NCBI RefSeq assembly: GCF_000003815.2
Contig: NC_049988.1
Span: forward strand, 18,137,210 to 18,201,209
DNA from: Branchiostoma floridae
Lineage: Eukaryota > Chordata > Leptocardii > Amphioxiformes > Branchiostomatidae
Direction: 5' to 3'
Length of the DNA stretch: 64,000 nt
A program made the translations under genes and the position numbers. Positions 2,046 to 38,044 of this stretch are shown piece after piece (position 1 is the first letter of the stretch; the number at the start of each line of letters is the position of its first letter). The notes under the pieces are model-generated. The model was not told the DNA's origin, ran no database searches, and worked only from the letters and a program-made list of their open reading frames with translations.

Positions 2046-2836
2046 CTAAATTTTACCAGCAAGTTCTTCAAACACATTTGAAAACTTTCTGCTATTGTCC
2101 ATATCCGGGGTTCCAACCTGGGCTGTTTTTGTGACGTTTCTATTCCCAACGGTTGACAAAGTACGGTTTGCTTTCTCAGCGGCCTCTGAAGTGGTTTCTC
2201 TGATAAAAGCTACCATCTTTAAATCATCAGTGTTCGGATCCTGACTTTCCTCTGCGTACACATCCATGAGGATAGCCATGAACATGCTCAGTAATATGAA
2301 CTGCATCATGACCTGGTAGGAAAAGAACATCAAAGGACCGAGAATATAGTGTCCATCCACCAGAGCATCGAAATCAAAAACACCCAACATCATGGTACAC
2401 AGGCTGGTCAGACTGGTCAGGATGTTCTTGTAATCCTGAAGTTTGATTCCGAACAGAAGATTTCCCATCTGAGTGAAGGCCATGAGAATGATGCCAGCGA
2501 TGATGGTAAATAGTAGAACGGGTCTGGCGGACTTTCTGATGGTCATGGTGAGGGCGTAAACGTGTGAGTTGAACCGCAGGAGCCGAATGAACTTCAACGT
2601 GCCACAACAGATGAGAAACGCGAGCAGGTAGGTGTAAACCTGAAACCAGTTGACTGCGCTTTTGTAGAGATCCAGAACGGAGCTTGAAGATGCCCGCTGT
2701 TCGGCAGCTTTGTCAATGATGCTCTGAGCGTTGAAGTAGACACCGAGAGTCGCGATGCCGATGGCGATTACAAGAAGTTCCACCCAGCTCCAGAAATCCT
2801 TCAGGTATTCCATCGGACGGGAGAAAAGCCTTTCGG
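2046..2836 (-). CDS. Polycystin-like exon 35: channel helices 8-11 and C-terminal tail
   Basis: The last coding exon (263 codons plus stop) holds four helices. They are [59 protein letters not shown] and [18 protein letters not shown], with the pore-region loop [20 protein letters not shown] between the last two. This is the PKD-channel family pattern, including RLLRFN after the second helix. The cytoplasmic tail is short (about 65 residues), acidic then polar, and lacks an obvious coiled coil of the kind human polycystin-1 uses to bind polycystin-2. The acceptor at 2837 (TCGTTTCAG) fits phase 1 from exon 34. Confidence 0.88.
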
Positions 2837-5800
2837 CTGAAACGACATGGATGTCTATGTCTTAGGGCCACACATTGAACACATTTGCAATGTTGGTACA
2901 AATTTCCCCATCCATAGACGTCCTATATTCCGGAAACATTTAGTTTTATTTTCTCCATTTGTGTCATCGTCATTCCAGTGACCTAAAAGGTCACGCTACA
3001 CACCCATACAATGACATGGTTTGTGAAGCACACATTGTATTTAATAAGTTAGAAAAGGTGGCAAGTTAGTGGTTCGAAAATTCGATGGCCAATTTTGTGT
3101 TTGAAGAAATTTTTATCACTGTAAAACCCTTACCTTCTTTAATAACAAATACAAGAATGAAGACTGCCAAGACAGCTCGCAAAGCCAAGAGTAAGATGGC
3201 CTCTTGTTGCATCAGCCTCAAAGTTACCACCTCTCCTCCCCTGTAGGCAGCTCCCAGGTTGGTAAACTCCACCACTAGCGTCACCATGGAGAACAGGTTG
3301 GCGTGTGGGTTGTACAGAATCAGCTCCACGATCACGGCACGCGTTCTCTCATCCAGCCAGCCGCGCTGCTGTAGGAATGTCGCCAACCGCAGACCCGAGG
3401 CACGAGTCTTTCCCAGCGGAACGTTGTAACCACCTGCGCGATATGTGCCGTGCTGGCCGAAATACGGGAAGCCTGGATAGACAACAGTATCTTTGAACAT
3501 AACGGTATATTGAACTTCAGGAGGCAACGGTCTCTCTCTGTGTCTCTCTCTGTCTTTGTCTCTATCTCTCTGTCTCTTCCTGTTCGTCTGTCTGTCTGTC
3601 TGTCTGTCTCTCCCTCTTTCAGTCTTTGTCTTTCTCTCTGTCTCCCTCTTTGTATCTCTCCCTCTCTCTGCCTGTGTCTCTCTCTCTGTCTCTCTCTCTC
3701 TCTGTCTCTGTCTCTCTCTCAGTCTCTCTTTCTCTCTCTGTCTCTCTCTCCCTGAATAGCGACAATGGATTGCCAATCCTGAAGTAACGGTATTGATAAT
3801 GAATCCAGACTTACTGTTAATAAGAGAAGCATCATGATTGTACTTCCAGGGCGTTTCCAATTCCTCTGCTGTCAGTAGACTGCTCACACAGTCCGCTCCT
3901 GTGACCGTGTCCATTGTACTGGTAGGGGTGGGGGGTGTCGGCGTGCCCACTGTACTGGTAGGGGTGGGGGATGTGGGCGTGCATAGTACCGGGTCTGTAG
4001 TGTCGAAGGTCTCGTTTTCACGAATCCAGCCCTATAGTTTAGAACCCATTGATTAATCAAATAGTGTTAAAAACATGACGGAAGGTAAAAACGTAAAGAA
4101 AGTTGCAGTAATCAAAACCTAACACGTCTGAAAGTACGCGTTGTAAATTCTCGTTACGTGATACTCGACAGCAAAACGTGCGGATTATTAGAACAATAAA
4201 AAGGAAAGATGAAATTGCCGCGGAAGCTAAACAGGACAATACGTCGGGCATTTGTTTAGCATAAAACCCGGTAGGAAGCAGGCTCTAGCCACAGTGTGTT
4301 TCTTGTTGCTAATAATGATGTATCTATATATTTACCTGGGTGTAATCGTCAATATCTTCCGTTAGTTTTGAAAAGCCCACGGTACAAAGTGGTGTTATAT
4401 GCTGCAGTCTCTTTGCTGTTTCGCAGAGTTGCCCTAAACAAGATACCCATAACACATATTAGTCATAGATACATAAGGCATGGAGTGGAAAGCAAGTAAC
4501 ACTCGTTTTATTATTTATTTATTAATCTTCAGACAGGTGGGTGACTCGTTCACTTTTTTGCGTGTGTGTGTGTGGGGGGGGGGGACCTAAACCACCTTTT
4601 GTCTTAAAACTGAGGGCAGTTATGGATATCAAATCGGTAGACGGTGGTTTCAAACTGTAATACTTTGAAAATATTGCAGTTTGGAACCACCGTCTGTTGA
4701 CTTGATATCCCTTAAGACTCTGTTCTTAAATCACGAACATAGGTTACCCCTCGGATAAAGATGATCTAGTGTTATCAAAACCGTAACATGAATTCACACA
4801 TTCATTGAAATGTATAGATAAGCCAGCATTTTGCCGTCCTACCCTGTTTGAGCCGCAGCTGCCTCAGCTGTACCGAGTCCAGTGGATGAGTTAACATGTC
4901 CTGCAGTACCGTGTCTGCCGCCAGGGTGCGCCCGTTGTACCACTCTGCTGAACGTGTTGTCGGAATCAGCTCATCTTCAAGCCAACTCCAGAAGGATTCG
5001 ATGTCGTTGACCTTGAAATGAGCAGAACAGATCATATTGCTGTAGAGCATGTTATCATTTTCAATGTATTTTTCTTGGGCCATGCTGTTTGGATTATATG
5101 GCTGACATCATCTGAGAACCCCCAAACTGATGCGAGCGTGCGAAAAAAAGGTTTGGCAAACAATTGCAAGTTGCCTTCGTTGTGAAATTTAAGTGGTCAG
5201 AGGTTGATCAAATAACAGTTAACTTAACAAACAGAGTATGATGTACCGAACAATAAATTCTTTGACCTTGGAATTGACGTTGGCATTCTATACGCTTTCC
5301 GATATTATGTTTGCAATCTACGGCACAACGCTCATTTTGCAGCTGCTTTTTACGATTTACAGTTTGGTTGAAACGTCTTTTTTAAGCGCGCATATATCAT
5401 CCATGTAGTCGTGTTGCCTGTTACCCACAGACGAAATACATATACAGTCTATCAGAAACCCTGGGGTCTTAGGTGACATAAATCATTTACCTATTTTTGT
5501 AGTACTTACATCAGAGAACCCTTCTCCCATGATCTGTTCCTTGACGTTCTGTGTCATGTAGAAGGCCAGCGGGCTCTGTTCCTGGTACGCCGTGAGCATG
5601 ATCACCGTCACGAACAGGCCGAACACGAGCACCTCCAGCACAGCCGCACGGCGTTTGCGTTTCTCTGCGCTCCTGGCTCTGGCTTCGGCCAAAACGTCTT
5701 CATCTGGTGGTGATGTGGACCTAACCTCAACTGGAAACTAATTTTATAACAAGTAAGTAACTAAAAGAACTTGATGTTCAAAACCAAAACAGCATTCGAT

Positions 5801-8800
5801 AAAGAAAAAGCTTTTTGAAGTTTAACAACCTTACGTCAATAGTCCTAGTAGCCTACATTTTAAAACAGTGTTTATAGAGCTACATTTGTATATGTGGCAA
5901 GTAGAATATTCGTGCCTTGCAGTACGTCGGTAGGTCGTGAGTTATATTCCTGGCCGAGTCATACTAAAGGCTTTAAAATGGTACGTGCTGCTTTTTCTGC
6001 TTAGCGCTCAGCGTTTGGGAAAAAGGATGGTTATTGAACAAGGCACTGCCACCAGCAAACTAGCCCCCTGCTGTAGTGATGGCACAAAGTTGTGTGGCCC
6101 AAGGGCTACAGAGATGAAGATGAACTATTTGGTGCGGGCAGGACTAACTAATATGAGTCGGGGTGTTTTACCTGGTAGGTTGCCACTCTACATCTTGTTG
6201 ATCATTGCCTCAGCATGTTGCAATAAGCAAATGTTTCTGATATAACATAACTGAAACTATGGGTCTACCTTTGGGTTGGTTCCATAGTCAGCCGCACGGT
6301 TAATGGTAAAATACCGTACCCAGCTGGTGGCACTGGTTCCTGACTTTTCCTTTGTAGGTGAGTTATTCTGTGGGATAACAAATAATAATTAGTGGCCCTG
6401 GGTTCAAACCCTGCAATGTCTGATCTTGTGCCCTTGGGAAAGGCACTTTACGCGACCTTCCTCACTCCAGGTGTAAAAATGGGTACCTGACTTCTGTCGG
6501 GGATGATAAATACTACCTTTAACTTCTGTCTGTACCGTGTATGTGGCACTGTTAAAATCAGTTACTAACTTGAGTGCAGTACCACATTGTCCTCGTCTAT
6601 CTCAAAGCATTTTTGTTAAATCACAAGCTGAAATGGAGTCGGATAAAAGCTACTATGAAACAGGTCATTACCTCATTGTATATGACGTATTCCTCATCAT
6701 TTCCTGTTGGCGTGGGAGGTGGATCCTTATCCTCCACAGGTTTCTATATTTTAAAGAAAAAACTTTATGTATTACACATAGTTTTACACACGTGGCACTG
6801 CCGCAAGTCTTAAGCCCCTATCTCACTGAGCGGAGGTACTATTGAGGTACGTTGGAGTTCGACAGCGTACCTTCAACGGACGTCACGGTGCCTCCGACGA
6901 ACTCCAACGTGCATTTTGCAACTTTAGGCGCTGTGGTTTTGACATTTAAAAAAAATAACGCAAGTTGCTTCACAAGTCTTGTACCAGTTGTCTGCCCTCC
7001 ATTCGGTGTTTGTGCGCGTGCAATCATGAAGCCACCACTGTCCGGCATGCCAGGTAGTTAACCATCGATGCATATGTTGTGCATTTGTATCCATACGTAG
7101 AGCCACGTTATGACATTAAACACATACAAATTCATAGCTAGGTCTAACATGGCGGTCGTTATTACGTATGGTGCATACACTATAGACCTTAACCCACATT
7201 TTCTCTTCAGCTAACATGCATTTTGTTGGAAATACATATATGTGCGTATACGATTACTTGAGATGTGCTTTGGCATGATTTTGGAGAACTGTACCTTGGT
7301 GTATAACGCAAAGATTACCGCCACCAGAACCAGCTTGACGGGCTGCACCAGGAACAGGTCAGTGACGAATGACGTCACGAAGGTGCAGGCCCAGGCCTCC
7401 GCCTTCGCTTTCCCGAAACTCAAGGTGTACAGAACTGTGAAGAAGGCGGCCACGAAACTAGCGGACCACACAAGCAACCAGCCTGGGGGTGTACACCATT
7501 GGTAACTTAGATATCGGTATTTTGAACAGTGTTGTACTTAATGTTAACAGTGTTTTACTTAATTCTATGCTACCATATGTCCCGTACAGTGTTGTACTTG
7601 ATTTCTAACAGTGCTGTACTTGATTCTATGCTAGCATATGCCATGGTCTTGTGTTTGGCAGCTGCTATGTTAGATGATGGTATAAAGACAGATAAGAGAA
7701 ATTATGTTTTGCATCGTAGACATGTTTACACTTTTTGTAGAACAATTTACGGATGAGTTGAAGTCAAAAACTGCAAAATGAATTAAGAGAAAAAGTGCAG
7801 CTTAAGTTAACTTTTGCGATAGATCTTTCAATCATTCTTGAGAAGTAGTTTTCAAGCGCCTTCTCGATAGATACCAGAAGACATCAATCCGCCGCAGTGA
7901 AAGACTGGGAACACTGTAACAGCCATATTCAAAAAGGAGGGTAGTGAATCTTCTACAACTCACCTATAAACACACCCCACCAGGGTAGAGACGACTTCTG
8001 TCCATGAGCAGCGTTGTCATGCGTCTTGCAACTTTCTTTAACATCAACATCCAATGAGGACTGTACCACTCTGAGCTTCTGGATGGGGACGGGTCGGCCT
8101 CTTGCAATTGGGTACCAAACCGACGGCGTGTCTGGGTTGTCAGAGATAAACGTTTCTTCTTTCTTAGGTCCCCTGTGTCTGCCTGGCTCCGACTTGGCTG
8201 GCTGGACTCCGCTGCCTGGCTTTAACTTCTTTCTGATGCTCTTTTTTTGTGCTCCAGACCGCGAATTGCGGAAGAGGAAGGCGATGAGGAGGTTGACTGG
8301 AAGGATGATGGCTGCACTCTGTATGCCGATCATCAGCTGAGAGAATAGAGTGAGAGGCACTAAAAACATCAAAACGTCACTAAGGGCATTCATACACCTT
8401 TTGCCCTACCCGTGATGTCATGCTTCCCTTTTGTAATACGATGAAGTTTTGGATTAAAATGGTTTATAAACATCAAAATGCATTTCCTTCTACCTGCGGA
8501 AGTGAAATCGGCGGGTTTATCTTCAGACCAGCGAATCTGATTGGTTCTGGAGGGTAGAAGTCGTCCCCGCGGCCGAAGAACATGATGTTGGTGAGCATCA
8601 TGCTGTAGAGCAGCGTCAGGCAGCAGGACAGGCGCTGGACACGGGTGAACGGGCTCCGGGCAGGGCGGCCGGCAACGGAGAACCACAGGTGGTCATCGTT
8701 CATTTCCCTGATTATTTATCACAATTATTTACTTCTTAAAACAATTTCTGGACAGAAAATGTCATAATTCAAAAAGTTGTGATAGTTCGTACTTGATTCG

Positions 8801-11058: not shown

Positions 11059-11100
<42 letters not shown>

Positions 11101-20100: not shown

Positions 20101-20345
20101 ATGGAAACAACAGAATGCAAAACAAAATATCAATCCATGTTCCCAACTAAATCACGACTAAATATATGGCCTCCAGCGATTGATATCAGCCCTACAGCGT
20201 CGGCTATGGCTAAACAGTCCTGCACGAGAATTACTGTCTAATGTGTAAGTGTGACATTACCATATGGCACATCAATAGAATGGTATTTGTCGAAGACACG
20301 GCTATAGTGCATATATTTTTTGCTTATACATATAGATAATGCTGA

Positions 20346-20382
<37 letters not shown>

Positions 20383-21105
20383 GCTCTCTCTATATACATA
20401 ATTATACATATACGTATACATATAGATATGGGCTGTTCTGTTCTGTTTCATTGCAAACATTTCGTCGACTCATCGCAGCATTGATACATCAACTAAAGTA
20501 AAGTAAAGTATGGACATTGCTCAAGAGCGAAAAGGGTACGAACGACAAACTGCAGAGAACAAGTATGCAGAAACCTTACCCAACCAGAAAACACGTTGAG
20601 AACGATGTCGGTGGGGGCAGCTTGCCTCTCTCCGGGAAACCTGACTTTTGCCGCTTCGACGCCTCCCGGTTCGACCTTGTACTTCACATCCATTTTCAGC
20701 GGGCCAACCTCATCATAAAAGTCTGCAAAAATGAAACGAAATGCAAATAGGTACTTATATTCAAAGGATGGCATCAAGATACATTATCATATTTGCACAT
20801 TCTTCGAACAATTGCATTGCATTTTTATCATATCATTGGGAGGCATCACCTGTGACGCTTTACAATGATATCATATCCAATTTTTCTGATATGAAAGTAC
20901 TTTCAAAGTGTCCTACTCGTAAGATGCGTACGAGGGCTACCAGGACCGAAGGAAGAGCTGAAATTTTCCTTGATCATCTGTCTGTTGTTTCTTTTATTGA
21001 TCTCTTAGCTGTCTAATGATGCATTATAGCATTGATAAAGTAAAAACAGAACATGGATGATCAAGGGACTTTTTAGCCCTTCCTTCGGTTCTGGTAGCCC
21101 TGGTA

Positions 21106-21170
<65 letters not shown>

Positions 21171-30100: not shown

Positions 30101-33100
30101 GAAATGTCGAAAATGCTGTCGCCTGACTTTACGACTTGAACCAGGTACCAATATATAGTTGCAAATATACTTTGTCATCATTCTATAGAGTCATAGCCGC
30201 CATGCTAAATAGACATGCATGGTCGGACATCGTTAATGGCACCTCATATGAGGATGAACTGAACTGAACTGATGTATGTCGGGCTTTATTGAAAATCAGT
30301 CAACCTGTCACTGACGAGACTACCCAGCCGTGACCAGCCGTGCCCAGCCGTGCCAAGAGGACTAAATCATTTTCTAACGGGACTGTTCAAAGCAAGGTCA
30401 TTAGACCACTCCAGGGCAATGAACTAAGATGTTGAAAATGATTATGATAGGAGACAGCGGTGAACATTTGTTTTGAAGGCTGATATGTTGTAAACAGGAG
30501 GGAAACAGTTGTTATTGAGAGTGTTCCACAGTTGGAAAGAAACTGTTGTACACAAGAATTCGTCTTTCGGAAGGGACGTAAAACGGGGGTGCCTCAAGCA
30601 CGTAATTCAGCCTCATTACTAAAAAAATATCAATACTAGAAAGGTAATATTTGCAAGCAAATACAGAATGTTACCTTCACATGTCTAACACTGGCAACTG
30701 TTTTGTTCATTCTTATTTGAACACATTTCTAAATGTAGTGACCCGAGGCCCTCTAGATCTGACATGTGCTACATTATGTAACCGAACACCACATGGTGCC
30801 TGCTACTTTACCGGTTACCATGGTGACAGCCGTCTGGTCCAGGTCGTTGACCTTATTTGCGCGGAAAAGAAGAAGAAACAAAGCAAAAACAGACACGTTC
30901 CCTTCTGTGAAGGTAACATAACAATCCATGCAGTACAGGCGTTCTTGAGTTATGGTGGTCCACACACACACGCGCGCGCTACCGAAAACATAACCTTCTT
31001 GCCGAAGGTAAAAATGGGTACCTTCTGGCTGCAAGTAATAAGTCAGATGTATTATCATAATTATTATTATTATCATTAACGAATATATATATAAATGTCC
31101 GTACCTGCGAATCCCCTCGTGAATGTCGAGTGTGACGTTGCAGGGTTGGTTCCCGGGCGGCCCGTACCCTGGCGATGTGGCGAGGCAGTTCGCGGCGTGT
31201 ACCGTCTCACATGGCGCCGTCAAGTCATCTGAGACGGGAAAATCTGCATCTGTATCTGTATCTGTATAGCCGATACAGCCGCCCTTCGGCGTAACACACC
31301 TGCTTCTGTATCTGCATCTATATAGCCAGTATAACCGCCCTACGGCGTATTAAGCATACTAGCTTCTGTATCTGTACCTATATAGCCAGTATAACCGCCC
31401 TTCGACGTAACACCAGCTTCTGTATCTGTACCTATATAGCCGGTATAACCGCCCTACGGCGTCGACTTCTGTATCTGTATCTATATAGCCAGTATAACCG
31501 CCCTTCGACGTAACACCAGCTTCTGTATCTGTACCTATATAGCCAGTATAACCGCCCTTCGACGTAACACCAGCTTCTGTATCTGTACCTATATAGCCGG
31601 TATAACCGCCCTACGTCGTCGGCTTCTGTATCTGTATCTATATAGCCGGTATAACCGCCCTACGGCGTAACGCACTAGCTTTCCCATTTCTATCAACCGT
31701 TTGCCCACACATGTCATTAGCGTAATCACTACAGCAGGGAGCTAAAGGTGGGTTTACACCTGCGTATATTTTCATGCCGCATGAGTTCCGTTTTGACATT
31801 TTTCGACATTTTGACTAATTTCTTCAATACGCGGCCGCACGCACAAGTCGCACCTCTATCGCATCTGAATCGTCTTTAGAAAGTTTCACGTACGCAGGCA
31901 AACGAAAATATACGCCCAGTTCGTCTGATAGTTTTGGACATGCTCAAAACTATCATTCGTACGCAGTTTGGTGCCCAAAACGTTATGGATGCGCAATACA
32001 GTGGTCCCACGTCGGTCGATTGCGCTATGAAGACGCTACATGTTTGCGCTTTATACGCAGTAATACGCGGATATCGCGGTATTGCGAGTACATAGCGTTC
32101 TTACAGCGCAGACACAACGCACCATGAGCGACCGTATAACGAATGCACACATAGATCACGATTTAGTACCGTGCGTTCTGCGATCGCTTTGCGCATACTA
32201 CGCGTACTGATAGCGTGATCGACGCACACTCCAGATTTGGAATAAATACGAAGGTGCATCTGAGTCCAGACAAAAAAAATCATCTCAAGATGTCAGATCC
32301 AGGCCAGGACTGACGAATTTGTACCGGGGGCATGGAGAGATGGTCACAACTTGCAGGACACCATGAATGTAACTGGTCCCAACAGAGCCTCCAGGGACGG
32401 GAAGATGTAGAGGAACCTGCTCAAGCACTGGGTCAACTTGTGTGACACACATGCCATTTTGTGTAAGAGATATTTTGTGTAACGTAATTTGCTGATAATG
32501 GCACTTTTTTGTGTGTAAAATCACATGATATAAAGGTGCAATATACGAGGGTGAGTCAGAAAGTAATGCAAGTGGTTTCATAACAGACTCGTTCTTTGAT
32601 CGAATGAGTTCAAATTTGGCACAAAGGTAGAGGCATATGTCCTCTTGAGATTAAAATATCTAAATTTCTTGTTCATTATTTCATGAGTGACTGACCAGCT
32701 TTCACGATGACCATACCCTAGGAATCCTGTCAGAAGAAAAGTGAGGTCCAATTAACGTACAATTAACGATTTCCCTAAACCAATTTTTGCTATTGTAGGA
32801 GACTGAGCCTGCACATGTAATAAGCTGCATTTCTCTATAACCGACGTGCTTATTTTCAACTCTGAAATCCGATCAGTTTGGCTTTTTTCGTTGCTGGAGT
32901 AGAGTGAGGTATACGCGATCGTCTGGGTCATGAGATTTGTGGTGTTATGATTAAAAGTTTCTATAGCCTTCTTTCCCCATTAACAAAGAGGAATAAAACT
33001 TAGCACACTTTTTGGCCTTTAAACAGTTAATAACTGTGTAAAGTTTCGTTTCTTTTGGTTAATGGAAAAGTAGTCTTTTAACCAACAACTCACGAATTCG

Positions 33101-36100
33101 TGTATCAATCCAACAGCTCGATATCACAACTTACTCCATCCTATCAGCTGTAAATGAGGAACCATTGAGAGTTCAGAAATGAAAATCGGTATGCATCATA
33201 TAGACACATTTGATATCATATATGTGTAATTTTAACCTCCTACAGTGATTTTCAGTGGGTCACATTTAGAGGAATTCATAGTCTGACAAGGTACCAAGGG
33301 TGTGTTCATCTTGAAATCAACTCAGTTGCTCATAAAATGATAAAGACCAAATTTGAAAAAAATTAATCTCAAGAGGACATTTGCCCCTCCGTTTGTGCAA
33401 AATTTCAACTCAATTGATTAAAAAACGAGTCTGTTATGAAACCACTTGCATTACTTTCTGACTCACCCTCGTAGAGCCATATTACAACTTTGAAAGAGGG
33501 CGTAAGGTTTCATAATTGTTTAATTTACGTGTTTGATAAAGATCTTGAATACGTTTTGTGGTGTGTATGAGTGTGATTTTTATAGTAGTTGAAATACTAA
33601 GATGATAGGGAAAATCATTAAGGACAAAGTGAAAACAAACACAATCTTAACAGTGCACATTATTTCTTAAGGTAAATGATGGCCCACATTACTGTAAAAG
33701 CACAGTATCACTGCTTCACTGCTTCGCAAATGAATAAAAAAACCTCTTCACTGTTTACTTGTCAATGTTCTACTTGCACTGCCTGTAAACAAAAGCATAC
33801 ATAGTACAAAGTGTTCCTCTAACAAAAATACTCTATTGGCAATGCTCGCAAACAAAAGTATATGTAACAGAAACTGTTCCTCTGACACACCTGAAATGCG
33901 TTTGTAATGCAGTTAGCACCAGGTGCGTCAGGCATGCGGTCGGTAGACGTTGTGTGCGTCCGGATTACGCCCAACATACGTACCCCATACGAATCTATTC
34001 GCAGTACTGAAAATTCTGTTGCGCATTTCAGTTGCAATCATACGCATCTCATGCGAAATGAAAACGCTGAAGTCGTCATTCAAACGCCAGATGGGCTCGA
34101 CGTACAATTTAATTTATTCCAAAAAAATTCCAAATGTTGGGCGTTAGGCCGCGTATTGACAAAATTCCATGCGGAACTCACGCGCACTTGAAATTATACG
34201 CAGGTGTAAACCCACCTTAATCTGCTGGTAGTACTGCGTATACTTTTTCTCGTAAGTGCTAAGGGCATCATTTACGTGTCAAAATTTCGTATTGAAAAAG
34301 GTACCTTAAAGAAGCGAAAATAGACGTAAATATGTCTATGATGCTTGGAACATCGCTTTGATTGCTTGATTTATCGAACTATCAGCAAGCCTTCTGACAC
34401 ACAAGGTCTGCAGTCTGACCTCGATACGCTAACAGAATGGCAAAATCGTTGGCTTATGTCGTTCAACCCCTCTAAATGTCACATCCCCTAAGAAGCACCC
34501 CATCTTAACTCAGTACTCCCTCTGCGGAGAAGCCCTCATCGGTGTTAAGTCCCACCCCTATCTTGGAGTGTTAACTGAACTGTCCGACGATTTCCGGTGG
34601 GACACCCATATCAACCACGCCACTAGCAAAGTCGGTAAGGTCCTAGGAGTCATTCGGCACAACTTGACCCATTGTCCATTATTGTATATTAGACAAAAAA
34701 TTAAAGGAATGTTTGCAGACCTTCTCAGGACGCAGGCTTGATAAGTGAATAAGTGAGACCTCTTGGATATAGTTGATCAGTGTAACATTAAAGTGGAGAA
34801 CTTAGCGATCATTGAGCGACCGTTGGGTGACCACTGAGCGCCGACTGCAAAAGCGCTGAGTGACAGGCAAACGTGAAGAATATTTTTAAAGGGTTTCAGT
34901 ATCTGTATCTGTATAGCCCGTATAACCGCCATTCGGCGTAACACACCAGCTTCGCAGGCACGCGGCGCGGCAGCAGCTGGTTATATTACACTGAACGATC
35001 CGTCACACCTAGCTTTTGCAAATCTATCTGCAAGCGTTCTTTAAAACTATCCAGAGAAGATGCCCCTACTGTGCTTGGTGATAACAAATTCCAATCAACG
35101 ATAGTTCTGGGAAAATACGAATTTTTGAGCACATCAATCCTAGCTTGGAAACTCTGGTGTGGCTACCGCTGTGCGACCGACTTAATTCAAATCAATGTTA
35201 CCCTTTAGCAACTATTTACTTTGAACCTTGCTTGTATCCATATTTCTATTTATTTCTATTCTATTTATAAAACAAGACGATTTTTCCCTTACCTCCGTGC
35301 AGGTCCAGCTCTTTGAGCCATGGCTGCCAGCCCGAGTAGGTCCGAGTGATCCGGAACCTCCAATACCGAGCTGTTCCTTGGAAACCGCCGAACTCCTGGC
35401 GCCGGTTCGTCCCTGCCTGCACGGTAGTAACGGTCACGACGTCCTCCCAGTTGTACGGACTCCCAAGTTGTGACTTTTGCAGCGTGAAGGCTGTAGCGTC
35501 ATGGGCTGTGTCTCCGACGTTGGTGACATCGACGCGAGTGATAGTAAATGGCGCTGTGAGGTCCAGGACAATGTACCAGTTGTTGTAGTTCTGACCCAGA
35601 AACCTAGGGTTCCAGTAGGTCCTAGTGTCTCCATCCAAGGCTCTTGCGGCATCTCCGTTTCCGGCGGAGTCCACAACCCATGACGGATCCCGTAGCAGCC
35701 TCACAACTGGAGAAGTATAACGTATGTCCAATATTTCATCACGTTTACAATTTTTAAGGTTTCCATTTTACTTCTTCGTACATTTTAAACCGACTTTTAC
35801 CTGTACCCATTTGATGATATGATCTGAAAATAGTTGATTTTAGTGCAAGTTCCCCGCTGCGTTTTACCTCACAGCAGAACGAAAGGAAATCTAGTGCGTA
35901 AAATAGAAAGAAGTCTCTTCTTTCAGGTGGTATATGGCATAGTATCAATTTCGAGGGCGAAAAAGGCTTAAATTTTAACCTCGGGAGGCCACCTCATTAG
36001 AGGCGTCAGAAAAGGAACGCTTCAGCGCTGGCATCAGGGCCCGTTCCATAGAGCGCACGCCGGACCCACATACTATGGCATCATTTCCGTGTCAAAATTT

Positions 36101-38044
36101 CGTATTGAAAGGGGTACCTTAAACAATCGAAAATAGACGTAAGCACGTCTACGATCTTTGAACAAAACGTCGTTTCGGTAGGCCTTATAATATGATATGC
36201 GATATTGCAGGAAATCGTAGCACGCTATCGTTACGATATCTTAACGTCCCTGTTACAACATCGTACACGTATTTTCGCTTGTTTAAGGTACCCTTTTCCA
36301 AAACGTTATTTTGACACGGAAATTGTAAAGCTGTGCAAAGGGGACGTATGGACATCGTTCAAAAGGCCCCTTCAGACCTACCGAAACGACGTTTTGTTCA
36401 AAGCATCGTAGACGTATTTCCATCTATTTTCGCTTTTTTAAGGTACGTTTTTCAATACGAAATTTTGACACGGAAATGATGCCATACTAAGTGCTCTCCT
36501 GACAGCCCAAGTCGCGTCCCAAATCACAAAACACCTGCAACTTCAACCAGAAGGTTCAGACTAGGAGAGAGCGGAGACACCATCTGGCAGCAGCAGAGCG
36601 AGTTTGCACATGTGAAACCTGCGGACGAGTTGCCCGCATCGGCCTGATAAGCAACCAGAAGCAAGGAATGACGTCGTCATCGAAACCAACGGACAGCACT
36701 GGTCTGTTAAGTTATGCTGGCGTCACAAATCAAGAAATGAGCTCGGCCGTCCTTTCGGCGAGCTCCAAATGGGCGTACGACTGACGTCCTATCGATAATA
36801 CCCTCCTCACATTAGGCGCGATTCGATCGGACGACGAGTCTGCGAGCTCTAAATTACGAGGAGGCATCCGATCGAATCGCGCCTAATGTGAGGGGGGTAT
36901 TACAACGGCTACGGGCGACTTTTAACAGCTCGTCCTTTGAGATTCAAACCTCGTTGTGGTGTCAGTTGTGCATCAAAAAAAGCAGGAAAGACCGGAGTGA
37001 AACACAGAGTCCCGTCTAATTTGTGACAGAGCAGATTTTTTCAATGAAAAATACGGTCGACGCTTGGACGATTTTGAAACTCAACAAGCTCCGACAGATC
37101 TACAAATTGGGTTCGCTTGAATTGTGACGCCGGCTTTACGAAAATGTGCGCAAAGAAATTTGCTCACCCAAGCAATCTCTTGGCTGTCCGTCCGCTGTGC
37201 AGGAACAGAGGGTGCACCGTCCGTTCCCTTCTACGACCCCGTCCTGACATGAACACGACGGGGCGGGGACATCACCACGACACAGGGACGACTCCACTCG
37301 CGGGAGGGACACTGCTGCCACCGACAGGATCGCTGCAGTTTTGTTGTAGATAAAACATTTTATTGTATCTCAAATAAACATTAATGAACATAGAGTCCAT
37401 TCCAAGTCACCATGAGGGTTTTTAGGTGATATTTGTAATTAGTCTGAATTATTTTGAATAAAAGAATATCTGAGCCACAATAATTACATTCTTTTCAAAG
37501 AACTGACTAAGAAAATATTCATCTATTTTAATTCCTTTGAATATTTTAGAAACATTTTGAAAATAACTGTACAAAAATATCTTTTTGTAGAATAATTGTG
37601 AAACCTCTGTGATTATTTCACATTTACAAATATTTACAAAAATAGGCAAATAAAGTTGAAACAGTGTTAAAAATATGTCCTAGACACATAATTACAAAAC
37701 TTTAGAATAAATTGTAAACAATGGCAACAAACATCCGCACGGTGTCTTGGAATGGACTCTATATGAAAGCAGAAATGATTAAATACATTAAAAAAAAATA
37801 GACGAACAAGGGCTGACACAAACGTAAATAGAAACTACAAAGGCCCGTATTTGCTTAAAGAGCAGCAAGTTTCCTTGCTGTTTCAGTAGAAAATTTCTAT
37901 AGGAATGGTTGATAGTCCTTCCCCTTAAATGTCTTTTGCCGTGCCAGGACAATATCTGCTCATGTATGCAAGACATCGAAGAACATTTAGAAATGTATTT
38001 CTACAAGATACATTCTTACCTGTAACCAGCAACAGCTTGTCCAT
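2046..38044 (-). CDS. Polycystin-1-like receptor-channel with F5/8C, REJ, GPS, PLAT and channel domains (35 exons)
   Basis: This is a member of the polycystin-1 family: a large membrane protein with a cleavable GAIN/GPS ectodomain and a C-terminal channel-like region, normally partnered with a PKD2-type TRPP subunit. Coding exons were joined by GT-AG sites and reading phase. They are, from 5' to 3': 38044-38020, 37332-37168, 35706-35293, 31228-31105, 29462-29378, 23774-23637, 23223-22980, 22737-22479, 22039-21832, 21596-21392, 20722-20580, 19924-19817, 19545-19369, 18072-17947, 17052-16941, 16781-16696, 15520-15401, 14780-14631, 13880-13668, 13458-13164, 12695-12565, 12204-11986, 11387-11280, 10813-10633, 10223-10158, 9523-9416, 8707-8494, 8336-7964, 7482-7295, 6743-6672, 5737-5510, 5011-4843, 3994-3815, 3514-3134, 2836-2046. 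Every junction agrees in phase, and the total is about 2268 codons if one base missing near 10730 is restored. There are no LRR, C-type lectin or PKD repeats. Small exons could be missing from the longest introns. The paralogue is not assigned. Confidence 0.85.
3134..5011 (-). CDS. Polycystin-like exons 32-34: TOP (polycystin) extracellular domain and TM7
   Basis: Exons 5011-4843, 3994-3815 and 3514-3134 encode the extracellular TOP domain of the channel unit and the following helix. Recognisable parts are [25 protein letters not shown], a Cys, then [35 protein letters not shown] and [18 protein letters not shown]7 is [19 protein letters not shown]. Exon 33 contains a coding minisatellite (two units of about [10 protein letters not shown]). 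Its acceptor could be at 4031 by strength, but only the site at 3994 keeps phase with exon 32. Exon 34 follows a long purine-rich tract on the coding strand, so its acceptor (CTCCTGAAG) is weak. Confidence 0.75.
3520..3760. repeat. (CT)n/(GA)n tract in polycystin-like intron 33
   Basis: About 215 bp of CTCTGTCT-type pyrimidine sequence on the + strand is a purine tract on the coding strand, immediately upstream of the exon 34 acceptor. It leaves the intron without a normal pyrimidine tract. Apparent RERQRE-type protein frames through it are artefacts. Confidence 0.85.
4624..4710. repeat. Hairpin repeat in polycystin-like intron 32
   Basis: The arms GGATATCAAATCGGTAGACG and the complement around 4690-4710 (CGTCTGTTGACTTGATATCC) pair with few mismatches around a loop of about 20 bases. 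It is probably a short foldback or MITE remnant; no target duplication could be defined. Confidence 0.65.
5110..5430. repeat. Dispersed intronic repeat, copy 1 of 3
   Basis: Shared landmarks with 13925-14135 and 23325-23600 are GAGCGTGCGAAA, AAGTGGTCAG, ACAATA(A/G)ATTCTT, CTTTGACCTTGGAATTGACG, and then TTTGCAATCTACGGCA in two copies. No frame or terminal structure was found. It is an unclassified old interspersed repeat. Confidence 0.6.
5510..8707 (-). CDS. Polycystin-like exons 27-31: membrane helices 2-6 and cytoplasmic loops
   Basis: Exons 8707-8494, 8336-7964, 7482-7295, 6743-6672 and 5737-5510 carry the helices after PLAT. TM2 follows the polycystin signature [24 protein letters not shown]3 is [22 protein letters not shown]4 ([18 protein letters not shown]) and TM5 ([20 protein letters not shown]) share one exon, and TM6 is [20 protein letters not shown] long basic loop ([13 protein letters not shown]) follows TM3. 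The 24-codon exon 6743-6672 encodes an acidic, proline-rich cytoplasmic linker; it was found by its splice signals and restores phase between its neighbours. Introns hold two SINEs and one copy of a dispersed repeat. Confidence 0.8.
5925..6180 (+). mobile_element. SINE fragment, family B
   Basis: It matches the 16040-16316 element in the opposite orientation: GGCCGAGTCATACTAAAGGC, TTTAAAATGGTACGTGCTGC, then CTAGCCCCCTGCTGTAGTGA. The tRNA-like head is partly eroded (only GTCGTGAGTT remains near the start). It lies in intron 30. Confidence 0.65.
6385..6600 (+). mobile_element. tRNA-derived SINE, family A, 5' truncated
   Basis: A B-box-like GGGTTCAAACCC is followed by the family core CTTGTGCCCTTGGGAAAGGC, CTCACTCCAGGTG, GGGTACCTGACTTCTGTCGG and a tail with CTTCTGTCTGTACCGTGTAT. 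The tail matches the reverse copy at 18112-18389. Confidence 0.7.
9416..11387 (-). CDS. Polycystin-like exons 23-26: PLAT/LH2 domain, with apparent one-base frameshift
   Basis: Exons 11387-11280, 10813-10633, 10223-10158 and 9523-9416 encode the cytoplasmic PLAT domain, a lipid- and partner-binding beta sandwich between TM1 and TM2. Landmarks are [30 protein letters not shown], then [44 protein letters not shown] and [11 protein letters not shown]. Within exon 10813-10633 the frame changes at a GGG near 10729-10731. Upstream, codons end VCFDR; downstream, the family-like frame begins GAWTPF. A fourth G would join them. The alternative, a 14-base intron, is implausibly short. Either an assembly deletion or a real lesion is possible. 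An upstream CA-rich run follows the exon 23 donor directly. Confidence 0.8.
10353..10588. mobile_element. Palindromic element with 12-bp target duplication
   Basis: The inverted arms (CAAGCAACTGGATATGGTTT and TTACTCAAGC on the left, their complements at 10545-10580) surround a core of about 60 bp. ATTCATCTTGTG occurs at 10341-10352 and again at 10589-10600, directly flanking the element. A related copy at 28209-28306 shows the same arrangement with a different 13-bp target. It lies in intron 25. Confidence 0.75.
11040..11275. repeat. (GT)n microsatellite in polycystin-like intron 23
   Basis: About 235 bp of GT-rich sequence on the + strand (CA-rich on the coding strand) begins five bases after the exon 23 donor (GTACGTACACACA). 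The long open frames in it are low-complexity artefacts. Confidence 0.9.
11986..13880 (-). CDS. Polycystin-like exons 19-22: GAIN domain, GPS and first membrane helix
   Basis: Exons 13880-13668, 13458-13164, 12695-12565 and 12204-11986 cover the GAIN subdomain B and the G-protein-coupled receptor proteolytic site. The diagnostic stretch crosses an exon junction. It reads [15 protein letters not shown], then [17 protein letters not shown], giving the W-x3-GC, HC-x-C and HLT elements. The HL/T bond is the autoproteolysis site in this fold, and both residues are present, so cleavage is likely. TM1 follows as [18 protein letters not shown], then a basic ARKADRKD start of the cytoplasmic PLAT linker. 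The acceptor chosen at 13458 keeps phase 0; a nearer one at 13437 would not. Confidence 0.85.
12970..13003. repeat. Perfect 15-bp stem, 4-base loop hairpin in intron 20
   Basis: ATCAGGTAGAACAAC, loop ATCG, then GTTGTTCTACCTGAT. The stem is perfect but too short for a canonical microRNA precursor. The flanks do not extend the pairing. Confidence 0.7.
13925..14135. repeat. Dispersed intronic repeat, copy 2 of 3
   Basis: This is a diverged copy of the 5110-5430 repeat (ACAATAGATTCTTC, then TTTGCAATCTACGGCATATA and GTAACTGCTTTCTAC). It lies in intron 18. Confidence 0.5.
14631..19924 (-). CDS. Polycystin-like exons 12-18: REJ C-terminal half and linker to GAIN
   Basis: Seven exons (19924-19817, 19545-19369, 18072-17947, 17052-16941, 16781-16696, 15520-15401, 14780-14631) are mostly symmetrical phase 0 modules of 36 to 59 codons. 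They encode helix-rich sequence such as [35 protein letters not shown] and [20 protein letters not shown]. This is typical of the region between REJ and the GPS, where polycystins carry helical GAIN subdomain A. Several N-x-S/T sites are visible. The introns hold three SINEs, a hAT-like element, a Harbinger-like element and a palindromic element. None interrupts coding sequence. Confidence 0.75.
15551..15811. mobile_element. Palindromic element, second copy of the 10353 family
   Basis: The left start CGTCGATG is followed by TTAGACATCCGGGTAATAAG and CAACTGGATATG. The right arm is ATATCCAGTTGCTTGGGTAA and ends CTGGCAT. The arms are inverted as in the 10353 copy. No clear target duplication remains. 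Confidence 0.7.
16040..16458 (-). mobile_element. Two adjacent tRNA-derived SINEs (families A and B)
   Basis: On the minus strand, 16458-16317 has a tRNA-like head (GCGTGGCGTAGCGGCGGC as A box, GGGTTCGAATCC as B box) and the CTTGTGCCCTTGGGAAAGGC core of family A. It abuts 16316-16040 with another head (TGGCCTAGTGGGTAG, GAGTTCGATCTCC) and the family B body. They are SINE heads, not tRNA genes: neither folds into a complete acceptor stem with a CCA-ready end. They lie in intron 16. Confidence 0.75.
17296..17604. mobile_element. Harbinger-like MITE with TTA target duplication
   Basis: The terminal inverted repeats AGGTGGGGTCACACATGCGT and its complement (ending CCCCACCT at 17604) are flanked by TTA at 17293-17295 and 17605-17607. 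A 3-bp TTA/TAA duplication is typical of the PIF/Harbinger superfamily. The interior is largely self-complementary. A larger relative lies at 31746-34217. Confidence 0.75.
18112..18389 (-). mobile_element. Full-length-looking SINE, family A
   Basis: Read on the minus strand: a tRNA-like head (GGCGTAACTGGTAGAGCG, GAGTTCGATCCCC), a C-rich run (18306-18319 is G on the + strand), the CTTGTGCCCTTGGGAAAGGC core and a tail ending ACATTGTCCTCC. It lies in intron 13, next to a hAT-like element. Confidence 0.75.
18428..18875. mobile_element. hAT-like non-autonomous element, copy 1 (decayed ends)
   Basis: It starts TAGGGCTGAGTACAGGTCCG and ends GGTACCCACCCCTA. It carries many AGGTCCGGACCTG-type units near both ends. 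It is the inverse-orientation relative of 28914-29347. Imperfect flanks (CCACAAAC against CCAGAAAC) may be the remains of an 8-bp duplication. Confidence 0.65.
19000..19260 (+). mobile_element. tRNA-derived SINE, family A variant
   Basis: The head GTGTGGCGCAATCGGTAAAT with B box GGGTTCGAATCC is followed by CTTGTGCCCTTGGGAAAGGC and CTCAGGTGAAAATGAGTACC. A different 3' part (GAAGAGCACACC, GGTGTGAGTGGATCAAACC) resembles 14215-14270. It lies in intron 13, adjacent to exon 13. Confidence 0.7.
20345..20415. repeat. (CT)n microsatellite
   Basis: About 40 bp of pure CT repeat (20351-20392), followed by a short TATA-rich stretch, in intron 11. Confidence 0.9.
20580..23774 (-). CDS. Polycystin-like exons 6-11: REJ region, N-terminal half
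   Basis: Six exons (23774-23637, 23223-22980, 22737-22479, 22039-21832, 21596-21392, 20722-20580) encode the start of the receptor-for-egg-jelly (REJ) region. This is the extracellular fibronectin-like array found in polycystin-1, PKDREJ and sea urchin REJ proteins. Supporting features are an opening [12 protein letters not shown] strand, the repeated beta-strand and loop texture, and paired cysteines ([39 protein letters not shown]). A family-like sequence [12 protein letters not shown] follows the last pair. The exons are phased 0-0-1-2-0-1-0 without exception. The SINE tail fragment at 22775-22860 lies only about 40 bp upstream of the acceptor of the third of these exons. Confidence 0.75.
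21108..21170. repeat. (TA)n microsatellite
   Basis: About 58 bp of uninterrupted TA repeat in intron 10. On either side are short inverted pieces (CTACCAGGACCGAAGGAAG near 20940 and CTTCCTTCGGTTCTGGTAG-like near 21075), so the repeat sits at the edge of a small foldback. Confidence 0.85.
22775..22860 (-). mobile_element. SINE family A tail fragment next to an exon
   Basis: The family A 3' end only (GAAGAGGACAATGTGGCACT, then CAGGCAGAAGGTAAAGG), about 40 bp upstream of the acceptor at 22738. Confidence 0.6.
23325..23600. repeat. Dispersed intronic repeat, copy 3 of 3
   Basis: This copy is close to the 5110-5430 copy (GAGCGTGCGAAAGAAAAGGT, AAATGTAAGTGGTCAGGGAG, CTTTGACCTTGGAATTGACG). It lies in intron 6. 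Confidence 0.6.
23803..24468. mobile_element. TA-flanked MITE, copy with internal insertion
   Basis: Its ends GAGTCCAAGTCACCATGAGG and GGTGACTTGGAATGGAC match the 37393-37759 element. About 300 bp at roughly 24020-24340 are extra. It lies in the 5.6 kb intron 5, close to the exon 6 acceptor. Confidence 0.7.
24711..27872. mobile_element. Large inverted composite element built of a 165-bp satellite in both orientations
   Basis: The outer arms 24715-24860 and 27240-27379 are inverted copies (TTTCAGCCATACCATAGGTA; TTGACAGGAGAAAGAAAGAA). A second inverted pair, CTAGAAAGGCCGACATTTGC at 25372 and its complement ending 27868, overlaps it. Between them about 165-bp units run one way at 25020-25370 (and 27380-27660) and the other way at 26480-27150, sharing TTTTGGTCAAAAATTGG and CAAAATTAAGCATTTTGTTG. 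No transposase frame is visible; the 187-codon frame in the array is a satellite artefact. Confidence 0.6.
27875..28030. repeat. Low-complexity TA and GA tracts
   Basis: ATATATGTATAT-type and GAGAGAGAG-type stretches follow the composite element. No gene. Confidence 0.8.
28209..28306. mobile_element. Short palindromic element with 13-bp target duplication
   Basis: An internally deleted relative of the 10353 element: ACGTCTATG, GTTAGACATGCAGGTAATAA, CAACTGGATATG, ending TTTGGCGT. ATAATCTTCTTGG is found at 28196-28208 and 28307-28319. Confidence 0.75.
28914..29347. mobile_element. hAT-like non-autonomous element with 8-bp target duplication
   Basis: The inverted termini TAGGGCTGGGTACCGGTAC and GTACCGGTACCCAGCCCTA are flanked by CTCGTAAG at 28906-28913 and 29348-29355. 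An 8-bp duplication with TAGGG-type ends is the hAT superfamily signature. Near the left end are overlapping CAGGTCCGGACCTGAACCTG-type units. It lies in intron 5, about 30 bp from the exon 5 donor. Confidence 0.85.
29378..31228 (-). CDS. Polycystin-like exons 4-5: Cys-containing linker between F5/8C and REJ
   Basis: Exon 4 (31228-31105) reads [20 protein letters not shown] and ends EGIR with two bases of the next codon. Exon 5 (29462-29378) continues [13 protein letters not shown] and ends FQCDHAYK in phase 0. Four cysteines lie in the first exon and two in the second, and no named domain is recognised. The acceptors are good (pyrimidine runs ending TCTCAG and TTTTTTCAG). The following intron to 23774 is 5.6 kb, the largest but one, and is filled by transposable elements. 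An undetected exon there is possible, because both sides are in phase 0. Confidence 0.7.
30050..30245. repeat. About 40-bp direct repeat, 150 bp apart
   Basis: GCATGGTCGGACATCGTTAA (inside a longer match beginning ATGCTAAATAGA) occurs near 30066 and again near 30217. The element type is unknown. The interval 30250-31100 holds another CTAGAAAGG-ended piece at 30636 and nothing else recognised. Confidence 0.6.
31240..31690. repeat. Tandem array derived from a LINE 3' end
   Basis: About seven units of 53-64 bp (CTTCTGTATCTGTACCTATA, TAGCCAGTATAACCGCCCTT, CGACGTAACACCAG). The same sequence occurs once at 34900-34955 as the terminus of a minus-strand LINE fragment, so the array probably arose from such a 3' end. 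It begins about 12 bp beyond the exon 4 acceptor. Confidence 0.75.
31746..34217. mobile_element. Harbinger-like element with TAA target duplication, host to a mariner-like insertion
   Basis: The inverted termini AGGTGGGTTTACACCTGCGT and its complement end at 34217, flanked by TAA at 31743-31745 and 34218-34220. The termini match the 309-bp element at 17296. The element, about 1.55 kb without the nested insertion, has scattered CpG-rich cores and no transposase frame. It lies in intron 3. Confidence 0.75.
32546..33470. mobile_element. Mariner-like MITE nested in the Harbinger-like element
   Basis: The inverted repeats of about 110 bp start CGAGGGTGAGTCAGAAAGTA and end with the complement at 33470, flanked by TA (32544-32545 and 33471-33472). 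CGAGGGTGA-type termini with a TA target are characteristic of Tc1/mariner families. No DD(34)D transposase frame remains. Confidence 0.82.
34264..34350. repeat. Fragment of the 36074 foldback family
   Basis: GGGCATCATTTACGTGTCAA, TTTCGTATTGAAAAAGGTAC and TCGAAAATAGACGTAA-like sequence match one arm of the element at 36074-36486. Confidence 0.6.
34385..34680 (+). pseudogene. Reverse transcriptase fragment of a LINE (frameshifted)
   Basis: The translation gives [25 protein letters not shown], then a stop. In the next frame it reads [20 protein letters not shown] and [13 protein letters not shown]. These are the conserved RT positions after the catalytic box (WQ-x-W-x-M-x-FN-x-x-KC, then YLGV and W-x-x-HI). 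At least one frameshift shows that it is dead. It is unrelated in sequence to the intact LINE at 39.5 kb. Confidence 0.75.
34893..35200 (-). pseudogene. LINE 3' end fragment (jockey/CR1-type C-terminus)
   Basis: The minus strand reads [32 protein letters not shown] and a short tail. This is the W-N-x-L...SLDSFK ending common to many jockey/CR1-type reverse transcriptases. It ends in GTATCTGTATCTGT-type microsatellite repeats at 34893-34915. It lies in intron 3. Confidence 0.65.
35293..35706 (-). CDS. Polycystin-like exon 3: F5/8 type C (discoidin) domain
   Basis: A single 414 bp exon encodes a full discoidin-type beta-sandwich of about 138 residues. Visible hallmarks are [18 protein letters not shown] near the start, then [24 protein letters not shown], a central WEDVV strand, and a C-terminal [20 protein letters not shown] followed by DLHG. 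Such domains bind glycans or phospholipids outside the cell. It is flanked in phase (1-1) by the Cys-rich exon and by the exon at 31105-31228, so it belongs to this polycystin gene and is not a separate locus. An F5/8C domain is not part of the vertebrate PKD1 N-terminus that I know. Confidence 0.85.
36074..36486. mobile_element. Foldback element with TGGCATCATTTCCGTGTCAA ends
   Basis: The two arms (36076-36180 and about 36380-36484) are inverted copies, flanked by TA on each side. Shared landmarks are TTTTGACACGGAAATGATGC, GTACCTTAAA, ATAGACGTA and AAAACGTCGTTTCGGTAGG. It lies in intron 2. Confidence 0.7.
36500..36740 (+). pseudogene. LINE C-terminal zinc-finger remnant
   Basis: A frame with [20 protein letters not shown] resembles the C2H2-like finger (C-x2-CGR...IGL-x-S) that ends many invertebrate LINE ORF2 proteins. 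The surrounding frame is broken. Short and uncertain. Confidence 0.45.
36796..36902. repeat. Near-perfect 36-bp inverted repeat
   Basis: TAATACCCTCCTCACATTAG, then GCGCGATTCGATCGGA on the left, and the complement on the right to 36902, around a 35-base centre. It may be a short MITE. Confidence 0.7.
37168..38044 (-). CDS. Polycystin-like exons 1-2: signal peptide and Cys-rich module with RGD
   Basis: The start ATG is at 38044-38042. Eight codons and one base (MDKLLLVT) end at donor 38020, and exon 2 resumes at 37332 with [16 protein letters not shown]. Together they form a textbook signal peptide split by an intron, which is why I chose this start. Residues after it carry a compact Cys-rich stretch (Cys spacing about C-x8-C-x-C-x11-C-x2-C-x-C-x8-C). 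It opens with LCRGD, so an Arg-Gly-Asp follows the predicted cleavage site. The Cys pattern resembles a VWC or EGF-like fragment, but I cannot assign it. Exon 2 ends in phase 1 at 37168, matching the F5/8C exon. Intron 1 (37333-38019) holds the TA-flanked element at 37393-37759. Confidence 0.7.
37393..37759. mobile_element. TA-flanked MITE (367 bp)
   Basis: The inverted ends GAGTCCATTCCAAGTCACC and GGTGTCTTGGAATGGACTC are flanked by TA at 37391-37392 and 37760-37761. The interior is AT-rich. The same family, with an insertion, is at 23803-24468. TA duplication suggests Tc1/mariner mobilisation. It lies in intron 1. Confidence 0.75.

What the first reader, a model, noticed from the sequence alone, without database searches (positions are those of the whole stretch)
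2046..38044. Polycystin-1-type gene with a discoidin domain and signal-peptide-proximal RGD instead of LRR/lectin/PKD repeats
Seen: 35 exons joined with every phase consistent, giving signal peptide, Cys-rich module with LCRGD, F5/8C, REJ, GPS with HLT, PLAT, TOP and channel. Known: vertebrate polycystin-1 family N-termini use LRR, WSC, C-type lectin, SUEL or PKD repeats. Inference: this lineage has a polycystin tuned to glycan, lipid or integrin ligands.
Basis: partly seen in the sequence, partly recalled or inferred. Interest (0 to 1): 0.7.

Follow-up and report, generated by a model that had tools for sequence, protein, structure and literature searches.

The report
Polycystin-1-like receptor-channel with sugar-binding-type domain
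This stretch holds one large animal gene of the polycystin-1 family (cell-surface receptor fused to an ion channel) whose outer tip appears to carry a sugar-binding-type module, although one reading-frame break and the lack of transcript data leave it unproven.

Summary
The gene is real. A gene-finding score of 418, against 6.9 +/- 2.1 in 25 shuffles and 34.7 on the opposite strand, excludes chance for the gene as a whole. Two corrections. First, an intact PLAT needs a one-base frame break in exon 24 near 10731; a clean frame exists only if 83 bases are skipped (PLAT 57.4 versus 41.5 bits). Second, F5/8C is not discoidin-like: no cysteine, and its weak nearest solved matches are glycosidase modules and lectins. 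A glycan ligand is the best guess; lipid and integrin readings lack support. The domain order after the tip is that of fish Pkd1l2a, which has C-type and galactose lectins there. I read this as an N-terminal module swap in a PKD1-family protein: a new variant of a known kind. Splicing of F5/8C to REJ is likely but unproven; linking exons vary between runs.

The parts
38020..38044 (-). exon 1: start ATG, first half of signal peptide (MDKLLLVT)
   Evidence: strong donor CAG|gtaaga; the ATG was imposed on the gene finder
37168..37332 (-). exon 2: rest of signal peptide and 7-Cys stretch with LCRGD
   Evidence: skipped in one half-trained run; no Pfam match for the Cys stretch up to E=10
35293..35706 (-). 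exon 3: complete F5/8C domain, 414 nt, symmetrical phase 1-1 exon
   Evidence: Pfam PF22633 and PF00754 1.5e-11 each; glycosidase-module and lectin matches, weak; held in 5 of 5 chains
31105..31228 (-). exon 4: Cys-containing linker between F5/8C and REJ; start 31228 or 31261
   Evidence: the three main runs start it at 31261, one half-trained run at 31228, one lacks it; only a RING-type chance match below cut-off in Pfam
29378..29462 (-). exon 5: start of the REJ region
   Evidence: same in 3 of 5 chains
20580..23774 (-). exons 6-11: REJ region (23774-23637, 23223-22980, 22737-22467, 22039-21832, 21596-21392, 20722-20580)
   Evidence: Pfam REJ 1.8e-9, best stretch aa 262-399; a later stretch 0.0018, below cut-off, about aa 606-637
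12565..19924 (-). exons 12-21: region up to the GPS, presumed GAIN-like (not matched by Pfam)
   Evidence: only GPS matched in this stretch
11986..12204 (-). exon 22: GPS motif with HL|T, stalk with FVPP, TM1
   Evidence: Pfam GPS 1.1e-8; FVPP shared with polycystin-1 6a70 in a weak alignment, E 0.21
11280..11387 (-). exon 23: start of PLAT
10633..10813 (-). exon 24: core of PLAT with one-base frame break near 10731
   Evidence: Pfam PLAT 3e-15 (57.4 bits) with both frames, 2.5e-10 (41.5 bits) if 83 nt are skipped
6269..10223 (-). exons 25-31: end of PLAT, TM2-TM5, cytoplasmic loops
   Evidence: 109-bit stretch with polycystin-1 6a70 covering PLAT to TM3; hydropathy
3134..5737 (-). exons 32-36: S1, TOP (Polycystin_dom), S2
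   Evidence: Pfam Polycystin_dom 9.8e-30
2046..2836 (-). exon 37: polycystin channel S3-S6, pore LGVFD, C-terminal tail, stop
   Evidence: Pfam PKD_channel 1e-35; PKD2L1 159 bits, PKD1L3 134 bits

Best explanation
One gene encodes a polycystin-1-family receptor-channel. An N-terminal signal peptide sends the ectodomain outside, where it exposes a CBM32-like F5/8C domain followed by a REJ/GAIN-type region. The protein is probably self-cleaved at the GPS between HL and T, so that the ectodomain stays as a non-covalent cap on an 11-helix fragment. Binding of a surface or matrix glycan by the F5/8C tip (or pull on it) would loosen the cap, free the stalk, and act through the TOP domain on the pore. 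The channel half most likely works as the minority subunit of a heterotetramer with a PKD2-type partner, letting in cations. Shown: gene model, domain order, GPS motif, lectin-type kinship of F5/8C (weak by sequence), channel kinship, replacement of the acidic filter residue by V. Inferred: cleavage, glycan ligand, partner, gating, and the splicing of F5/8C onto REJ.
For: Chain score 418 vs 6.9+/-2.1 in 25 shuffles and 34.7 on the opposite strand, the real first exon being kept in front of each control. F5/8C exon held in 5 of 5 chains: three penalties and two half-trainings, one of which did not see it. Exons 1-2 give a signal peptide in the same frame. Pfam domain set. F5/8C: 10 solved chains listed at E up to 10, best 7.9e-4, glycosidase modules, lectins and one uncharacterised protein. 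Channel: PKD2L1 159 bits, PKD1L3 134, PKD2 133; PC1 channel stretch 44 bits, PC1 PLAT-to-TM3 stretch 109 bits. 1:3 PKD1L3/PKD2L1 with Lys/Asp filter (PMC8357825, abstract and passages); HL|T and stalk-TOP-pore model (PMC9672506, passages). Order as zebrafish Pkd1l2a; GPS end to PLAT start 73 aa there, 71 here.
Against: No transcript. The gene finder was forced to start at 38044, so it could not test a separate gene. The links between exon 3 and exon 6 are unstable: the lax run adds several exons, and the 3'-trained run skips exons 2, 4 and 5 and uses 31024-30819; the 5'-trained run misses the true last exon. Exon 24 needs a frame break for an intact PLAT, so this copy may be a broken allele, a pseudogene or a sequencing error. 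Exon 3 is symmetrical (phase 1-1), so skipping it would also keep frame. AATAAA lies at 35254, just past the stop reached by reading through exon 3, and 8 leader-like ATG-donor combinations (5 ATGs) lie between exons 3 and 6, against 1 on the plus strand; one is in phase for exon 5, three for exon 6. No binding residue was tested; the F5/8C model was too poor (pLDDT 42.6) to compare folds.
Confidence: 0.65

Rival explanations
1. Two transcripts or two genes: a short secreted protein (signal peptide, Cys stretch, F5/8C, stop 35261) and a separate polycystin whose first exon lies downstream of exon 3.
For: Read-through of exon 3 meets a stop at 35261 and AATAAA at 35254; one leader-like exon at 30919-30819 ends in phase 2, as exon 5 requires, and three others end in phase 0, as exon 6 requires. 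Links between exons 3 and 6 vary between runs.
Against: Exon 3 has a strong donor (7.4) and exon 4 a fitting acceptor in the same phase; AATAAA/ATTAAA occurs 35 times in 36 kb of this strand, so one nearby is weak evidence.
Confidence: 0.22
2. The locus is a decaying or null copy: a once working F5/8C polycystin truncated in PLAT by a one-base loss.
For: The two halves of exon 24 lie in different frames and together match PLAT better than the second half alone.
Against: No stop codon in the other 36 exons when phases are followed, apart from the last; a one-base loss in a run of G is a common assembly error (general knowledge).
Confidence: 0.15
3. The F5/8C domain is only a structural spacer or protein-protein adhesion module and binds no glycan (not exclusive of the gene model above).
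For: Many F5/8C-fold domains bind proteins or lipids (general knowledge); no binding residue was tested here.
Against: Nearest solved matches are glycosidase modules and lectins, though weak; lectin modules occur in the ectodomains of PKD1, PKD1L2 and SpREJ1-3.
Confidence: 0.3

Closest known systems
PKD1L2 / zebrafish Pkd1l2a (PMC5318412, passages)
   Same: No PKD repeats; sugar-binding-type module(s) at the N-terminus, then REJ, GPS, PLAT, channel; similar length (2485 vs about 2336 aa) and nearly equal GPS-PLAT spacing
   Different: Pkd1l2a has a C-type lectin and a galactose-binding lectin; here Pfam listed neither, and an F5/8C domain instead. REJ starts at 648 there, 262 here. Orthology not tested by a tree
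Sea urchin SpREJ1-10 (PMC1934368, abstract and parts 1-2 of 4 read)
   Same: REJ, GPS, PLAT and, in SpREJ3-6, 11 TM with channel homology
   Different: Listed N-terminal modules are C-type lectin, EGF, SUEL, PKD repeats, WSC, Ser-rich; no F5/8C in the parts read
Polycystin-1 (6a70 and others)
   Same: GPS with HLT, stalk FVPP, PLAT, TM2-5, TOP, channel
   Different: No LRR, WSC or PKD repeats listed here; channel stretch scores nearer to PKD2L1 and PKD1L3 than to PC1
PKD1L3 in PKD1L3/PKD2L1 (7d7e; PMC8357825)
   Same: TOP plus channel; acidic filter residue of PKD2L1 (D523) not kept
   Different: PKD1L3 has K2069 near this place; here the aligned segment reads LGVFD
CBM32 / NedA-like F5/8C domains (the name CBM32 is recalled, not printed)
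   Same: Domain family by Pfam, weak phmmer matches
   Different: The matched ones are glycosidase modules and lectins, not receptor-channels

Membership tests
PKD1 (polycystin-1/REJ) family | REJ domain | tested here: met
   Pfam REJ 1.8e-9, 37.1 bits over cut-off 25, but the best stretch covers only 3-133 of 452 profile positions; a later part weak
PKD1 (polycystin-1/REJ) family | GPS motif before TM1, with HL|T | tested here: met
   Pfam GPS 1.1e-8 at 1162-1201, HLT at 1196-1198
PKD1 (polycystin-1/REJ) family | PLAT after TM1 | tested here: met
   Second half alone 2e-8; full 3e-15 only with both frames of exon 24 joined
PKD1 (polycystin-1/REJ) family | 11 transmembrane segments, the last six channel-like, with TOP domain | tested here: met
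   11 hydrophobic segments after the signal peptide when overlapping windows are merged by eye; Polycystin_dom and PKD_channel
PKD1 (polycystin-1/REJ) family | Self-cleavage at GPS; assembly with a PKD2-type partner | not testable with these tools
   needs expression
PKD1L2 subfamily | C-type lectin and SUEL/galactose-binding lectin at the N-terminus | tested here: not met
   Pfam lists neither on the joined protein at E up to 0.1
PKD1L2 subfamily | Groups with PKD1L2 in a tree | not tested
   no animal PKD1L2 sequences at hand
F5/8C (CBM32/NedA-like) | Profile match above curated cut-off | tested here: met
   PF22633 45.2 bits (cut-off 27.8), PF00754 44.9 (28.2)
Discoidin/coagulation-factor-type F5/8C | Flanking disulphide-bonded cysteines (recalled as typical) | tested here: not met
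   0 Cys in aa 64-202; no coagulation-factor, neuropilin or DDR chain among the 10 hits at E up to 10
Integrin ligand by RGD | Exposed RGD beyond chance | tested here: inconclusive
   2 RGD, 0.42 expected; exposure unknown

The most novel reading that the evidence does not exclude
A glycan-gated receptor-channel: in this lineage a PKD1L2-type polycystin exchanged its C-type/galactose lectins for a CBM32-like F5/8C domain by insertion of a single symmetrical phase 1-1 exon, so that a foreign or matrix glycan (for example chitin- or galactose-type) is read directly into cation entry.
Probability: 0.25. Interest if true: 0.5.

Novelty: new variant of a known kind. Interest (0 to 1): 0.3.

Why it matters
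Ligands of polycystin ectodomains are poorly known (general knowledge), and the family varies mainly in its N-terminal modules. A member whose tip is one compact, expressible carbohydrate-binding-type domain would make the question 'what does the ectodomain sense' testable with a glycan array. It would also suggest that the receptor half is a swappable sensor on a fixed GPS-PLAT-channel chassis.

Tried and rejected
Discoidin/coagulation lipid-binding reading: not favoured, for lack of Cys and of such hits. Integrin/RGD reading: not supported. Bacterial origin or contamination of the F5/8C exon: a genome-contig scan, which reaches close relatives only, confirmed none of 70 pattern matches; tblastn in plasmids found none. 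Rfam families at gathering score and ARAGORN tRNAs in the window: none. First gene-finder runs with too low an intron penalty gave 120 to 139 exons over four rounds, many of them a few bases long, and were discarded. Identity of the 7-Cys stretch: no Pfam match; a resemblance to VWC modules is my impression only. Structure of the F5/8C exon: predicted without relatives, mean pLDDT 42.6, so no fold search was made. Literature: ten searches in open-licence PMC; I saw listings only, capped at 20 of 163 papers, 20 of 41 and 20 of 22, and none of the listed titles or abstract starts describes F5/8C in a polycystin. The library lacks most subscription papers and no animal protein database could be searched, so prior annotation of this gene is not excluded. 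Amphioxus does carry an annotated pkd1l2 (PMC10199209, passages). The source organism is unknown to me; a non-vertebrate deuterostome is a guess.

Full report
What was claimed.

The gene exists. I wrote a dynamic-programming exon chain with generic splice weights and a small coding model trained on 18 hand-picked pieces of this locus. It was made to start at the ATG at 38044 and to end within 38100-1900. At intron penalties of 10, 14 and 18 it gave 43, 30 and 26 exons; all three end at 2046 and hold the F5/8C exon, and 25, 24 and 22 of my 37 curated exons are identical. At penalty 14 the score was 417.6; 25 dinucleotide shuffles gave mean 6.9, s.d. 2.1, maximum 11.7, and the opposite strand gave 34.7, with the real first exon kept in front of each control. 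The curated chain has 37 exons and 36 of 36 consistent junctions; this count is partly by construction, since phase guided my choice.

How firm the 5' part is. Trained on the ten 5' pieces, the chain recovered 16 of 37 exons exactly, with exons 1-6 as curated, but ended at 2306 instead of 2046. Trained on the eight 3' pieces, which exclude F5/8C, it recovered 15 of 37 exactly (19 with at least 90% overlap), kept exon 3, but skipped exons 2, 4 and 5 and used 31024-30819 in their place. The lax run added two exons between 2 and 3 and three between 3 and 4, put in 30978-30812 and shortened exon 5. So exon 3 is coding, but its links to exon 6 are less sure than the rest. As the start was imposed, these runs cannot test whether F5/8C belongs to a separate gene. 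Weakest splice sites: donors of exons 19 (0.6) and 20 (1.0), acceptors of exons 32 (1.2) and 6 (1.8).

The frame break. Exon 24 (10813-10633) begins in frame 0 with ITLVLYGSQ... and continues as [10 protein letters not shown]... in another frame, with the change near 10731. The two frames joined with X give PLAT 57.4 bits over profile 1-105, while skipping 83 bases through an acceptor at 10730 gives 41.5 bits over 44-105. A weak alignment to polycystin-1 also runs into the first half (E 0.21). So either this assembly or allele carries a one-base loss, or PLAT is shortened by splicing. The statement that every phase is consistent does not hold for an intact protein.

Domains. On the joined protein Pfam gives F5/8C 3.8e-10 and 8.1e-10 (within aa 78-190), REJ 1.8e-9 (best stretch aa 262-399), GPS 1.1e-8 (aa 1162-1201), PLAT, Polycystin_dom 9.8e-30 (about aa 1796-2047) and PKD_channel 1.2e-36 (about aa 2054-2269) (positions of the second half shifted by 1317). 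No LRR, WSC, C-type lectin, SUEL or PKD repeat was listed at E up to 0.1. Hydropathy shows a signal peptide and eleven further segments once overlapping windows are merged by eye. The stretch between signal peptide and F5/8C has 7 Cys and no Pfam match.

Which F5/8C. The domain has no cysteine. At E up to 10 the ten listed solved chains are three glucanase/chitosanase modules (best 7.9e-4), two putative chitobiases, an uncharacterised protein, a lectin, two hyaluronidase modules and FBP32; three have E of about 0.001 or less, the rest run up to 0.73. No coagulation factor, neuropilin or DDR chain was among them. With the whole ectodomain as query the same matches are weaker (0.038 and up). The label CBM32 for these modules is recalled. 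This favours glycan binding, modestly. The RGD count (2 found, 0.42 expected) does not support an integrin role.

Which polycystin. The PLAT-to-TM3 part matches polycystin-1 (109 bits). The TOP-channel part is nearest PKD2L1 (159 bits), then PKD1L3 (134) and PKD2 (133), with the PC1 channel stretch at 44 bits. The filter Asp523 of PKD2L1 aligns with Val here (LGVFD). PKD1L3, with Lys2069 at the filter, forms a 1:3 heteromer with PKD2L1 (PMC8357825, abstract and passages). I infer a similar use here. The plan, one or two sugar-binding-type modules followed by REJ, GPS, PLAT and channel without PKD repeats, is that of zebrafish Pkd1l2a (PMC5318412, passages): GPS-to-PLAT gaps are 73 aa there and 71 aa here, though REJ starts at 648 there and 262 here. 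I do not file it as PKD1L2, because the lectins are absent and no tree could be made.

Is F5/8C on the same transcript? For: same frame, a strong exon-3 donor (7.4), a fitting exon-4 acceptor, and a signal peptide only needed once. Against: exon 3 is a symmetrical 1-1 exon that could be skipped; a read-through stop at 35261 followed by AATAAA at 35254; 8 leader-like combinations from 5 ATGs between exons 3 and 6 on this strand, against 1 on the other, one in phase for exon 5 and three for exon 6 (the same scan did not detect the two-exon leader of exons 1-2, as it looks for single exons); and the unstable links above. I put the join at about 0.75 (0.80).

Literature. In the papers seen, listed N-terminal modules are: sea urchin SpREJ - C-type lectin, EGF, SUEL, PKD, WSC (PMC1934368, abstract and parts 1-2 of 4); zebrafish - LRR, WSC, C-type and galactose lectin, PKD (PMC5318412, passages); Nematostella - WSC, PKD, REJ (PMC8846589, passages); Acropora - WSC, PKD, REJ, GPS, PLAT (PMC4890752, passages); planarian - terms discoidin, 'F5 8' and lectin absent from the main text (PMC11448475, term counts and passages). 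None of these passages names F5/8C. Ten searches listed no paper that I saw to join the two, but three listings were capped, the library is partial and gene-model databases were out of reach. N-terminal modules already vary widely across these papers.

Verdict. A sound observation of a real gene, over-stated on phase, slightly mis-labelled on domain type. It is best seen as an N-terminal module variant within the PKD1 family, with a testable glycan hypothesis and a frame break that must be resolved first.

Noticed in passing
39503-42016 and 42080-45880 (+): Two long uninterrupted ORFs (837 and 1266 aa): the first with a GDSL/SGNH hydrolase match at its cut-off, the second with endonuclease and reverse transcriptase; looks like a nearly full, recently active LINE starting about 1.5 kb upstream of the polycystin start codon, in opposite orientation.
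   Followed up: partly
10633-10813 (-): One-base frame change inside the PLAT exon of an otherwise open 37-exon gene.
   Followed up: partly
3906-3982 (-): A 36-bp tandem repeat (2.1 copies) lies inside coding exon 35 and encodes a Thr/Pro-rich insertion within the TOP domain.
   Followed up: no
35249-35254 (-): AATAAA a few bases after the stop reached by reading through the F5/8C exon; a short secreted isoform is conceivable.
   Followed up: partly
55192-55336, 58195-58582, 60457-60746, 63846-64000: Arrays of related 42-bp or 22-bp repeats with TGTGAGCACACAG-like units, in both orientations, over about 9 kb.
   Followed up: no
24958-25370 and 26565-27167: Tandem arrays of about 162-163 bp in the long intron 5.
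   Followed up: no
51786-52409 (-): Open frame of 207 aa without Pfam match at E up to 0.1; possible exon of a neighbouring gene.
   Followed up: no
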